Of a DNA stretch of 64,000 nt, positions 26,743-29,557 are shown one piece after another (position 1 is the stretch's first letter; each line of letters starts with the position of its first letter). This stretch comes from Acetobacter oeni (GTDB lineage Bacteria > Pseudomonadota > Alphaproteobacteria > Acetobacterales > Acetobacteraceae): NCBI RefSeq assembly GCF_011516825.1, contig NZ_WOTA01000018.1, positions 1 through 64,000 on the forward strand, written 5' to 3'. The notes beneath the pieces were generated by a model. That model saw only the letters and a list, made by a program, of their open reading frames with translations, had not been told where the DNA came from and ran no database searches. The translations under genes and the position numbers were made by a program.

Positions 26743-27501
26743 TCAGGCCGCAACCTGCGGCTGGCTGAGCCGAACCGCGACAGGCGCCGCTTCGACCGGA
26801 ACATCCATCGCAGCCACATCCGTGCGCTGCATCTGCTCGCGGAGCATGTAGCCACGGCCCCAGACGGTGGTGATCAGGTTTCCCGCCCCAACAGTCTGCA
26901 GTTTTTTGCGCAGCTTGCAGATGAAAACGTCGATGATCTTCATCTCCGGTTCATCCATGCCACCATATAGATGGTTCAGAAACGCATCCTTCGTCAGGAC
27001 CATTCCCTTGCGCAGCACGAGCAGCTCAAGAATTGCATATTCCTTGCCCGTCAGATGAACCGGGGCATCGTTAACCGTCACCTCGCGGCTGTCGAGACTC
27101 AGCTGAAGCGGGCCAACACGCAGGGTTGGTTCACTGAATCCTTTGGAACGGCGCAGGATAGCCTGCATGCGGGCAATCAGTTCCTCGGGATCGAACGGCT
27201 TCGTGAGATAATCGTCAGCGCCGACCGAGAAGGCTTTTACCTTAGCCTGCGGCCGGGTGAGCCCGGAGAGGACAACAATCGGGGTCGCAACGCGTGCCGC
27301 ACGGACGCGGCGGACAACCTCATATCCTTCAATATCCGGAAGCATCAGCTCCAGCACGGCGAGATCATAATCGTAATGACGAAGCATCTCGACTGCCTCT
27401 TCGCCGCTGCTGACATGATCAACAGTAAATCCGGCGCCCTTCATGATCTGGGTGACATCGTTCACCGCGACCGTATCATCTTCGACGAGCAGAACACGCA
27501 T
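26743..27501 (-). CDS. ctrA: CtrA-type response regulator with Glu at the phospho-acceptor site
   Basis: A 252-residue OmpR-family response regulator clearly of the CtrA type. The output domain contains HLTGKEYAILELL, FLNHLYGGMDEPEMKIIDV and WGRGYMLR, close to Caulobacter CtrA. The receiver keeps the acidic pocket (Glu7, Asp8, Asp9), Ser79 and Lys101, but residue 51, the phospho-accepting Asp in CtrA, is Glu (codon at 27349-27351, GAG). Asp56 five residues on is the ordinary LPD residue. Numbering uses the ATG at 27501, which has GGGAG eight bases upstream; an in-frame ATG ten codons earlier exists. The tail after WGRGY is about 20 residues longer than in Caulobacter. It is divergent from fliI. 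Confidence 0.93.
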   Translation of the reverse strand: MRVLLVEDDTVAVNDVTQIMKGAGFTVDHVSSGEEAVEMLRHYDYDLAVLELMLPDIEGYEVVRRVRAARVATPIVVLSGLTRPQAKVKAFSVGADDYLTKPFDPEELIARMQAILRRSKGFSEPTLRVGPLQLSLDSREVTVNDAPVHLTGKEYAILELLVLRKGMVLTKDAFLNHLYGGMDEPEMKIIDVFICKLRKKLQTVGAGNLITTVWGRGYMLREQMQRTDVAAMDVPVEAAPVAVRLSQPQVAA

Positions 27502-27523
27502 CTGAGTAACTCCCGGTTCGTTG

Positions 27524-27538
27524 TTGACCATTAGTTAC
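27524..27538. promoter_or_regulatory. degenerate CtrA-box-like sequence
   Basis: TTGA-CCATTAG-TTAC resembles the CtrA recognition sequence TTAA-N7-TTAA with two mismatches. It lies 23 bases before the ctrA start, in the spacer shared with fliI, where autoregulation could be expected. The match is weak and could be chance. Confidence 0.25.
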
Positions 27539-27669
27539 CACCAGAGGTTGTATGCGTCTACGGAAATTTCACGTAAAGCGTGTATAAAGAATTTCTACAC
27601 TCGTTAATGAAACGGAAAACGTATGATTTTTGACACTATTCTCACCATATCCCGGAAAAACCCGGCTAT

Positions 27670-29067
27670 ATGACAAGATCAGAGCTCCTCGACCGTTTCT
27701 CCGCAACCTGCGCGGGTATTCCAGCCGCAACCGCGTCCGCACGCATAACCGGAGTCTCGGGGCTTGCCGTGACCGTTTCCGGCCTGGGCGGACTCGCCTC
27801 CGTCGGAGACCGGATCACACTGCTCCGGCGCGACCGGACAGAGATCCCGGCGGAAATCATCGGGTTTTCCGGCGTGACAGCGCGCGCGATGGCGTTCGGC
27901 AGCCTCGATGGAATCGGAAGCGGAAGCGAAGCACGGTTTCCGCTCTTTATCAGTCCGAAAGCACCAAAGCCCGGCGGCACACTCCGGGTTTCCGATGCCT
28001 GGGTGGGACGGATCATTGATCCTCTCGGACGCCCGATCGACGGAAAAGGGCCGCTGCCACCGGGCGACATCGCCCGCCCGGTGCGCGCCTCACCTCCGGA
28101 GGCGACCCTCCGCGCCCGGCTCGGGCCACGGATCGATCTCGGCGTCCGGACCATGAATCTGTTCACCACCTGCCGGGAAGGGCAGAGACTCGGATTGTTC
28201 GCCGGTTCCGGCGTGGGAAAATCAACGCTGATGTCGATGCTGGCGCGCAATACCGCCTGCGATGTCGCCGTTATCTCACTGGTCGGCGAACGTGGCCGCG
28301 AAGTCAGAGAGTTCGTCGAGGACGATCTTGGACCGGAAGGGCTGGCGCGCTCGGTTGTGGTGGTCGCGACATCCGACTCTCCGCCGCTGATGCGACGTGA
28401 AGCTGCCTACGCCGCGCTGACGGTTGCCGAATATTTCAGCGACGCGGGAAAATCGACTCTTCTTCTTATGGACAGCGTCACCCGCTTCTGCCAGGCCCTG
28501 CGCGAAATCGGCCTTTCCATGGGCGAACCACCCGCCACGCGGGGTTATCCACCCTCGGTGTTTGCCGAACTGCCGAGACTGCTCGAACGCGCAGGCCCGG
28601 GTATCGTGCAGCCGGACGGGACGGCCGGCCAGATTTCCGCGCTCTTTTCCGTTCTTGTCGAAGGTGACGATCAGAACGAGCCGATCGCCGATGCCGTGCG
28701 CGGCATTCTCGACGGTCACATCGTCATGGACCGACGGATCGCGGAGAGCGGCCGCTACCCGGCGATCGATGTCCTCCGATCCCTGTCGCGCACTGTGCCC
28801 GGCTGCAATTCAGCGGATGAAAATGCCCTGACACAACGAGCCCGGGCCATCCTCGCCGTCTACGCCGAGATGGCGGACATGATCCGTCTGGGTGCGTACA
28901 AGCCCGGCGCCGATCCGGATGTCGATGAAGCCATTCAGCTTCGGCCGGCCATCGAGCAGATTCTCTCGCAGGGCAAACATGAATGTGCCCGGCTCCCGGA
29001 CTGTTTTGCCGCGCTCAGAGACGCGCTCGCGGAAACCCCGATTCCGGAAGAAGGCGCCGCCGGATGA
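27670..29067 (+). CDS. fliI: flagellar export ATPase FliI
   Basis: A 465-residue type III export ATPase of the flagellar branch. Walker A is GLFAGSGVGKSTL (about residues 178-190), then LVGERGREVREF and the Walker B region STLLLMDSVTRF. The N-terminal beta-barrel and the C-terminal domain are complete. With FliH and FliJ it supports export of flagellar axial proteins at the inner membrane. fliJ follows after 61 bases; no other flagellar gene is in the window. There is no clear Shine-Dalgarno sequence before the ATG. Confidence 0.94.
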   Translation: MTRSELLDRFSATCAGIPAATASARITGVSGLAVTVSGLGGLASVGDRITLLRRDRTEIPAEIIGFSGVTARAMAFGSLDGIGSGSEARFPLFISPKAPKPGGTLRVSDAWVGRIIDPLGRPIDGKGPLPPGDIARPVRASPPEATLRARLGPRIDLGVRTMNLFTTCREGQRLGLFAGSGVGKSTLMSMLARNTACDVAVISLVGERGREVREFVEDDLGPEGLARSVVVVATSDSPPLMRREAAYAALTVAEYFSDAGKSTLLLMDSVTRFCQALREIGLSMGEPPATRGYPPSVFAELPRLLERAGPGIVQPDGTAGQISALFSVLVEGDDQNEPIADAVRGILDGHIVMDRRIAESGRYPAIDVLRSLSRTVPGCNSADENALTQRARAILAVYAEMADMIRLGAYKPGADPDVDEAIQLRPAIEQILSQGKHECARLPDCFAALRDALAETPIPEEGAAG

Positions 29068-29128
29068 TCTGTCTTGTGATCGCCCCCCGGCCGCCAACCC
29101 GCATAATTTCCTGACAGGACAGATATCC

Positions 29129-29557
29129 ATGGCCAGATCCCCGCTCGACTCGCTTCTTCGTCTCAGACGTCAGGAACTCGACGAAGCAAAACGACTGCTC
29201 TCCGAGGCGCTGGCACAGGCCATGACTGCTGCCAACGCCATAAAGAACGCCGAGCAGAATATGGTCAAAGAACGTGATATCGCGCTCGATCTCTCAGCCG
29301 ATGATCGGACAGTCGAGACCTATTCCCGCTGGCTGCCGATCGGGAGAGCCGCTCTCGAGCGAGCCAGAAAGCAGGAGCAGGACGCAGCCGCCGGGGTTCA
29401 GTCTTCGCGCACCCGCGTCAATATGGCCCGGGCCGCCCTGGAAGTCGCGGAGAAGCTGGCGGAAAGTCGCGCAAAGGAAGAGCAGGCACGCCAGGACAAA
29501 AAAGAACAGAATACGCTCGACGACCTGTCCGCCCGCCGCTCTTACGACGCCGAATAA
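29129..29557 (+). CDS. fliJ: FliJ-like flagellar export coiled-coil protein
   Basis: A 142-residue, almost wholly helical, charged protein with heptad-like coiled-coil stretches over about residues 8-125, matching the size and character of FliJ, the stalk and chaperone of the FliI ATPase. The assignment rests mainly on its position directly after fliI, because FliJ sequences diverge quickly. The ATG fits a short hydrophilic MARSPLDSLLRLRRQ opening. A 99-base spacer separates it from tsaE. Confidence 0.8.
   Translation: MARSPLDSLLRLRRQELDEAKRLLSEALAQAMTAANAIKNAEQNMVKERDIALDLSADDRTVETYSRWLPIGRAALERARKQEQDAAAGVQSSRTRVNMARAALEVAEKLAESRAKEEQARQDKKEQNTLDDLSARRSYDAE

What the first reader, a model, noticed from the sequence alone, without database searches (positions are those of the whole stretch)
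26743..27501. CtrA homolog with Glu at the phospho-acceptor position (D51E)
Numbering from the ATG at 27501, the residue aligned with Caulobacter CtrA Asp51 is Glu (codon 27349-27351 reads GAG on the coding strand; context LAVLELMLPD). The other receiver residues (Asp8, Asp9, Ser79, Lys101) and the whole CtrA output domain are kept. In Caulobacter, D51E is the known phosphomimetic, partly constitutive allele. A natural D51E would imply a CtrA uncoupled from the CckA-ChpT phosphorelay and controlled instead by level, degradation or partners. I know of no description of this, but I could not search.
Basis: partly seen in the sequence, partly recalled or inferred. Interest (0 to 1): 0.75.

Follow-up and report, generated by a model that had tools for sequence, protein, structure and literature searches.

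The report
CtrA without its phosphate acceptor
The regulator CtrA of this Acetobacter carries a natural glutamate where the phosphate normally goes, the kinase relay that would switch it was not found in the genome, and many related acetic acid bacteria share or go beyond this change, so it probably works as a regulator that is no longer switched by phosphate.

Summary
Confirmed. The window encodes its genome's only CtrA, with GAG (Glu) at codon 51. It is no sequencing error: nine of nine Acetobacter loci and 28 of 80 named relatives have E51, though the same genus also holds D51/K9, H51 and CtrA-less genomes. In 115 Acetobacteraceae genomes chpT (E<=1e-4) is matched in 64 of 72 with an intact pocket, 0 of 26 with E51, 0 of 6 with H/A/N/R51 and 1 of 8 with D51 and another pocket change. 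CckA-like matches point the same way, less cleanly; the window's genome has neither. Most of this is one clade, possibly one ancient event. Outside the family 101 of 103 CtrAs keep D51. The receiver is no relic: dN/dS is 0.00-0.06 in 13 E51 pairs, and the OmpR-type dimer face is among its best kept parts. My reading: CtrA here is uncoupled from the relay and works as a phosphate-independent dimer set by its amount. Whether E51 mimics phosphate is unproven. The searches made found no description in print.

The parts
26743..27501 (-). ctrA, 252 aa, sole CtrA of the genome
27349..27351 (-). codon 51, GAG (Glu in place of the phospho-acceptor Asp)
   Evidence: E51 also in L146-L154
27148..27501 (-). 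receiver domain, residues 1-118; D8 D9 S79 K101 and the dimer-face residues K87 D96 D97 E107 R111 R118 present
26836..27132 (-). output DNA-binding domain, residues 124-222; 87% identical to the consensus of the 64 intact chpT+ CtrAs
26746..26754 (-). C-terminal Val-Ala-Ala; the tail is otherwise variable, but the window and all 9 Acetobacter loci read end in V/F/L-A-A (possible ClpXP degron, inferred)
27523..27538 (-). GTAAC-N6-TCAAC upstream of ctrA, resembling a published CtrA box (GTAAC-N6-TTAAC); present in the window and all 9 Acetobacter loci; possible autoregulation, weak
27537..27551 (-). near-palindrome ACAACC-N3-GGTGGT upstream of ctrA, operator-like, regulator unknown
27670..29067 (+). 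fliI, flagellar export ATPase, divergent neighbour of ctrA (ctrA-fliI also in chpT+ relatives and in the four outgroup loci L243, L246, L250, L254)
28892..29557 (+). ORF that contains fliJ (FliJ domain at residues 97-216)

Best explanation
This is the true CtrA orthologue of an Acetobacter, from a lineage that lost the CckA-ChpT phosphorelay. With no donor left, the acceptor Asp51 was replaced by Glu, and in many relatives the rest of the pocket followed. The receiver was not discarded: it is kept by selection, most strongly in parts that include the alpha4-beta5-alpha5 face by which OmpR-type regulators dimerise, so I infer that it now serves as a standing dimerisation module for a conserved DNA-binding domain. 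CtrA activity would then follow CtrA amount: transcription of ctrA and, in Acetobacter, perhaps ClpXP proteolysis through the conserved ...AA tail. Its likeliest retained job is flagellar gene control. Shown by sequence: E51, absence of chpT and of a CckA orthologue from the own genome, the clade-wide pattern, purifying selection, kept dimer-face residues. Inferred: constitutive dimerisation, control by amount, target genes, order of events, and whether Glu51 acts as a phosphate mimic in Acetobacter.
For: chpT at E<=1e-4: 64 of 72 intact-pocket genomes, 0 of 26 E51, 0 of 6 other-51, 1 of 8 D51 with changed pocket (values copied; at E<=1e-3 66 of 72, 1 of 26, 1 of 6, 1 of 8). CckA-like matches at E<=1e-90: 45 of 72 intact, 0 of 26 E51, 0 of 6, 0 of 8; own genome's best, all 60 candidates scored, 34% identical and 179 bits. 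Helix alpha1 positions 15, 18 and 19, which touch ChpT in the Brucella complex (passage of PMC9981736), lose their usual family residues in E51 CtrAs. Receiver dN/dS 0.00-0.06 in 13 E51 pairs and 0.097 in one H51 pair, against 0.02-0.14 in six measurable D51 pairs. Dimer face in the relay-less clade: D96, D97, R118 37 of 37, E107 and R111 36 of 37, K87 32 of 37, while D8 ranks 96th, P55 102nd and residue 51 58th of 118 by conservation. Identity to the intact consensus is 0.80 and 0.53 (intact, E51) in the receiver, 0.85 and 0.74 in the output domain (the consensus is that of the intact set itself). The 7 CtrA-less genomes tried lack flagellin; 21 of 34 CtrA-bearing ones, the window's genome included, have it.
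Against: The E51-chpT link rests mostly on one clade: 25 of 26 E51 rows lie in one 37-row group, and only 3 independent pairs could be drawn on supported branches, too few for a test; on the same tree residue 51 needs at least 11 changes, so E51 itself was gained or lost more than once. Eight of 72 intact-pocket genomes fall below the chpT threshold (two of them with weaker matches, some incomplete), and six small alphaproteobacterial genomes without a chpT match keep D51, so relay loss does not by itself lead to E51. CckA scores form no clean gap: a paralogue-type kinase (L230) reaches 4.4e-92, E51 genomes reach 3.6e-77, and only 5 candidates per genome were scored except in the own genome. 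No CtrA box of the forms tried was found in 56 kb around the own flagellin-domain genes, so flagellar control is not supported by motif. The ...AA tail is not kept in most E51 CtrAs (4 of 26). The pairing of the dimer-face residues is recalled from other OmpR-family regulators, and the ChpT contact sites are carried over from Brucella, where the family's intact CtrAs already have other residues at 11 and 15.
Confidence: 0.7

Rival explanations
1. Glu51 is a selected, true phosphomimetic: it locks Acetobacter CtrA in the active conformation, as the D51E allele is used in Caulobacter, and was the step that allowed the relay to be lost.
For: In Acetobacter the rest of the pocket is untouched (DDESK in the window and 8 of 9 named loci; 2 of 38 near-constant receiver sites differ). 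E is the commonest state in the relay-less clade (25 of 37). D51E is used as phosphomimetic in Caulobacter and Rhodobacter (passages of PMC12186491 and PMC6363796).
Against: H, A, N and R also occur at 51 in the same clade, and 24 of 26 E51 CtrAs no longer have Asp at 8. D to E is also a one-base change, so drift gives it readily. Intact-pocket D51 genomes below the chpT threshold exist (8 of 72), so relay loss may come first.
Confidence: 0.4
2. The receiver has been recruited to another input: a ligand, a protein partner or another modification controls it in place of Asp phosphorylation.
For: The receiver is under purifying selection without its acceptor; Tyr at 98 is nearly fixed in E51 CtrAs (25 of 26) against 16 of 64 in intact ones.
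Against: The best kept sites include the dimer face and core and show no new pocket (no structure was computed); SciP, a known partner, has no match in the 16 family genomes tried, D51 ones included.
Confidence: 0.2
3. CtrA is on the way out: relaxed selection after relay and flagella loss, E51 being an early neutral step.
For: Some relatives have no CtrA match and no flagellin; three Acetobacter without flagellin have no fliI or fliJ beside ctrA and carry K9 or H51/D101.
Against: dN/dS of receiver and output domain is as low as in D51 CtrAs; the window's genome still has flagellin, fliI and fliJ; output domain 87% identical to the intact consensus.
Confidence: 0.07
4. Sequencing error, or a paralogue with the real CtrA elsewhere.
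For: None found; reads not available.
Against: Nine Acetobacter loci from other records agree; no second CtrA in the genome; fliI synteny as in other alphaproteobacteria.
Confidence: 0.01

Closest known systems
Canonical CtrA (Caulobacter, other alphaproteobacteria)
   Same: Domain order, output domain, fliI neighbourhood, NCBIfam equivalog score
   Different: Phospho-acceptor D51 replaced; CckA and ChpT not found in the genome
Laboratory allele ctrA D51E
   Same: The same residue change
   Different: Here natural, widespread in a clade and without the relay; activity untested
Atypical (aspartate-less) response regulators (recalled)
   Same: OmpR-type regulator whose receiver lacks the acceptor Asp and is kept
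   Different: Acidic residue and the rest of the pocket still present in most Acetobacter loci read; descends visibly from a phosphorelay target
CtrA of Rhodobacter capsulatus, partly active unphosphorylated (passages of PMC6363796)
   Same: CtrA function without phosphorylation
   Different: There D51 and CckA are kept and both states are used
Wolbachia CtrA (passages of PMC4426382)
   Same: CtrA within a reduced set of two-component proteins
   Different: Keeps the conserved Asp

Membership tests
CtrA | REC plus Trans_reg_C architecture | tested here: met
CtrA | Curated CtrA equivalog model NF045991 over its cut-off | tested here: met
   351 against 350 bits, narrowly
CtrA | Orthology: only close CtrA in genome, beside fliI | tested here: met
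CtrA | Phospho-acceptor Asp51 | tested here: not met
   Glu; 101 of 103 CtrAs read from other families of the class have Asp
CtrA phosphorelay target | chpT in the genome | tested here: not met
   no PF10090 match in the own genome, 10 candidates scored; Caulobacter control positive
CtrA phosphorelay target | cckA in the genome | tested here: not met
   best of 60 scored candidates 34% identical, 179 bits; 45 of 72 intact-pocket genomes reach E<=1e-90, about 300 bits
CtrA | Binds CtrA boxes | tested here: inconclusive
   conserved GTAAC-N6-TCAAC before ctrA; none in 56 kb around own flagellin-domain genes
CtrA | Control by CpdR, RcdA, DivL, GcrA and CcrM | not tested
   not searched; SciP has no match in the own genome
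Atypical (aspartate-less) response regulator | Acceptor Asp absent, receiver kept by selection | tested here: met
Atypical (aspartate-less) response regulator | Phosphorylation-independent dimerisation and DNA binding | not testable with these tools
   dimer-face residues kept; biochemistry needed
Phosphomimetic CtrA (D51E) | Constitutive activity caused by Glu51 | not testable with these tools
   residue matches, effect unknown

The most novel reading that the evidence does not exclude
A whole clade, the acetic acid bacteria, has taken apart the CckA-ChpT-CtrA relay and runs CtrA as a phosphate-independent, permanently dimeric regulator set by its amount; the natural D51E of Acetobacter preserves an early step of this conversion, with the rest of the pocket still in place.
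Probability: 0.5. Interest if true: 0.82.

Novelty: new variant of a known kind. Interest (0 to 1): 0.7.

Why it matters
Phosphorylation is described as the one indispensable control of CtrA in Caulobacter, and a 2010 survey found ctrA without chpT in some alphaproteobacteria and suggested that other phosphotransferases may stand in (passages of PMC2877005). Here a simpler answer fits: in this clade the acceptor went as well as the relay. It offers natural intermediates, from intact, to E51 with a full pocket, to wholly eroded, of a switch turning into an unswitched regulator, in cultured bacteria where it can be tested.

Tried and rejected
A recalled CckA motif used as a DNA pattern found nothing in 17 genomes, so CckA was sought from the solved Caulobacter kinase core instead. 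That core alone did not separate CckA from other hybrid kinases; an Acetobacteraceae candidate orthologue did better but without a clean gap. Own hybrid kinases: the two best CckA-like ones (at C19 and C2, on L120 and L122) are 34-36% identical. Receiver-less CtrAs suggested by partial matches: G086 is cut by a contig end; G062 and G032 were fetched but not resolved; all three stand as 'truncated' and carry no part of the argument. SciP as the new controller was rejected. A C-terminal AA as a general feature of E51 CtrAs was rejected (4 of 26). CtrA boxes near flagellin-domain genes: none. The thiD query was in a wrong frame, so nothing is said of thiD from that call. No structure was predicted.

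Papers: searches showed no report of a natural E51 CtrA; only listings and passages were seen, several listings were cut (20 of 29, 25 of 1,640 and 20 of 42 papers), and the library lacks most subscription journals. Passages in AAB papers that mention CtrA: PMC12733265 cites Caulobacter CtrA only; PMC13214618 shows no CtrA in its main text.

Sampling: one search uses 112 of the 203 family genomes that match at 1e-60 plus 3 found only at 1e-40, chosen as best scoring, one per genus where possible, and low-scoring ones on purpose, so the percentages are not those of a random sample; chpT and cckA E-values were copied by hand. One search read 103 of the 106 genomes of other families that match. 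In the tree, half of the intact chpT+ rows (32 of 64) and the 3 truncated rows were left out.

Full report
OBSERVATION. The ORF at 26743-27501 (-) encodes a 252-residue CtrA with GAG (Glu) at codon 51. It has the receiver and winged-helix output domains and passes NCBI's CtrA equivalog model by one bit (351 against 350). The genome holds no other CtrA; the next regulator is 37% identical. fliI lies divergently beside it, as in chpT-bearing relatives and in four outgroup loci (L243, L246, L250, L254). The nearest named relative is Acetobacter musti (91% identical CtrA; records of the window's own genome may be left out there).

NOT AN ERROR, AND NOT ALONE. The nine Acetobacter loci among the best 80 named loci (L146-L154) have E51; eight of nine keep D8, D9, S79 and K101. 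Of the 80, 28 have E51 and 52 have D51; the E51 ones include Gluconobacter, Neokomagataea, Brytella and Tanticharoenia, these with Ser or Asn at position 8. The genus is not uniform: of five other genomes with the window's genus code, one has D51 with K9, two have H51 and two have no CtrA match at 1e-40. In a class-wide sample 101 of 103 CtrAs of other families have D51; the two E51 exceptions (L328, L343) come from genomes of 1.1-1.2 Mb without a chpT match.

LINK WITH THE RELAY. I read the five pocket residues in 115 Acetobacteraceae genomes and set them against chpT (PF10090) and a CckA-like search. chpT at E<=1e-4 is matched in 64 of 72 genomes with an intact pocket, 0 of 26 with E51, 0 of 6 with H, A, N or R at 51, 1 of 8 with D51 but another pocket change, and 1 of 3 with incomplete CtrA (Fisher intact against E51 p about 5e-17, which ignores kinship). 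At E<=1e-3 the counts are 66, 1, 1, 1 and 1. CckA-like matches at E<=1e-90: 45 of 72, 0 of 26, 0 of 6, 0 of 8, 1 of 3; at 1e-80: 52, 0, 0, 1, 2. This second marker is softer: scores run on without a gap, a paralogue-type kinase (L230) reaches 4.4e-92, and five candidates were scored per genome. In the own genome all 60 candidates were scored and the best is 34% identical.

KINSHIP. On a CtrA tree built without the pocket columns, 25 of 26 E51 rows, all 6 other-51 rows, 5 pocket-changed D51 rows and 1 intact row (G013, a long branch) form one group of 37 (SH-aLRT 95). chpT needs 7 changes on the tree and residue 51 needs 11, so E51 was gained or lost repeatedly inside the group. Only three independent pairs could be drawn on supported branches, so the association cannot be called repeated; the simplest history is one loss of the relay at or near the base of the acetic acid bacteria, with change of the pocket afterwards or alongside. 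G081 (E51), G053 and G093 outside that group hint at parallels. The tree is a quick one with several long branches that meet. Six small genomes of other families without a chpT match keep D51, so loss of chpT permits but does not force the change.

WHAT IS KEPT. In E51 CtrAs the receiver has lost much of its identity to the intact consensus and the output domain less (0.53 and 0.74, against 0.80 and 0.85 in the intact set, from which the consensus was made). Within the receiver of the 37-row group, D8 ranks 96th, P55 102nd, K101 61st and residue 51 58th of 118 by conservation, whereas D96, D97, R118, E107 and R111 rank 6th to 14th and K87 26th; S79 (25th) and P102 (11th) are also kept. The former six pair across the alpha4-beta5-alpha5 dimer of PhoP-like regulators (recalled). 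Residues of alpha1 that face ChpT in the Brucella complex (passage of PMC9981736) have changed at 15, 18 and 19. dN/dS for the receiver is 0.00-0.06 in 13 E51 pairs, 0.097 in one H51 pair, and 0.02-0.14 in six D51 pairs (two more D51 pairs gave no value). The receiver is therefore still used.

MECHANISM. I conclude that CtrA here works without phosphorylation, probably as a standing dimer. In the window's CtrA only two of 38 near-constant receiver sites have changed, one of them residue 51; a mimic of the phosphorylated state is plausible there. It cannot be the general rule, because the same clade has H, A, N and R at 51 and 24 of 26 E51 CtrAs lack Asp8. Control by amount is inferred: the variable tail ends in V/F/L-Ala-Ala in the window and all nine Acetobacter loci (but in 4 of 26 E51 genomes), which resembles a ClpXP degron (recalled). 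A GTAAC-N6-TCAAC element, resembling a published CtrA box (GTAAC-N6-TTAAC, passage of PMC6363796), stands 37 bases before the start codon in the window and at 37-40 in the nine loci. The pattern KTAAC-N6-TYAAC occurs before ctrA in 8 of 26 E51 genomes and 0 of 64 intact chpT+ ones (shuffle expectation 0.05 and 0.03). It is the only exact match in the 64 kb, but with one mismatch allowed the window holds 2 matches against 3.26 expected. The motif variant was chosen after seeing the alignment, the loci are related, and no such site lies in 56 kb around the own flagellin-domain genes, so this is weak. Flagella: the 7 CtrA-less genomes tried lack flagellin (two of them, G116 and G157, known CtrA-less only at the cut-off), and 21 of 34 CtrA-bearing ones have it; three Acetobacter without flagellin have K9 or H51 CtrAs.

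KNOWN AND NEW. Absence of chpT and cckA from many Rhodospirillales is reported (passages of PMC2877005 and PMC8116508), as is use of D51E as a laboratory phosphomimetic (passages). I found no report of natural loss of the CtrA acceptor in the searches named under Tried and rejected. I rate it a new variant of a known kind.

Noticed in passing
window 27537-27551 (-): Near-palindrome ACAACC-N3-GGTGGT before ctrA; a looser form (CAMMC-N3-6-GGTDGTA) stands before ctrA in 11 of 26 E51, 9 of 64 intact chpT+ and 27 of 80 named loci, 0 of 28 loci of other families, against a shuffle expectation near 0. Regulator unknown; found on both sides of the relay loss.
   Followed up: partly
L081, L088, L091: Flagellin-less Acetobacter: fliI and fliJ not found beside ctrA, which lies near tsaE and glmM with a conserved output domain and a changed receiver; this suggests a non-flagellar role or recent loss.
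   Followed up: partly
L328 (G337) and L343 (G336): Two further E51 CtrAs in alphaproteobacteria with 1.1-1.2 Mb genomes outside the family, without a chpT match.
   Followed up: partly
16 Acetobacteraceae genomes: No SciP (PF06627) match in any, chpT-bearing ones included; present in both outgroup genomes tried.
   Followed up: no
e.g. G003 C37, G166 C10, G047 C74: chpT lies about 6 kb from ctrA in several chpT-bearing relatives.
   Followed up: no
family sample, residue 98: Tyr98 nearly fixed in E51 CtrAs (25 of 26) against Phe in 47 and Tyr in 16 of 64 intact ones.
   Followed up: no
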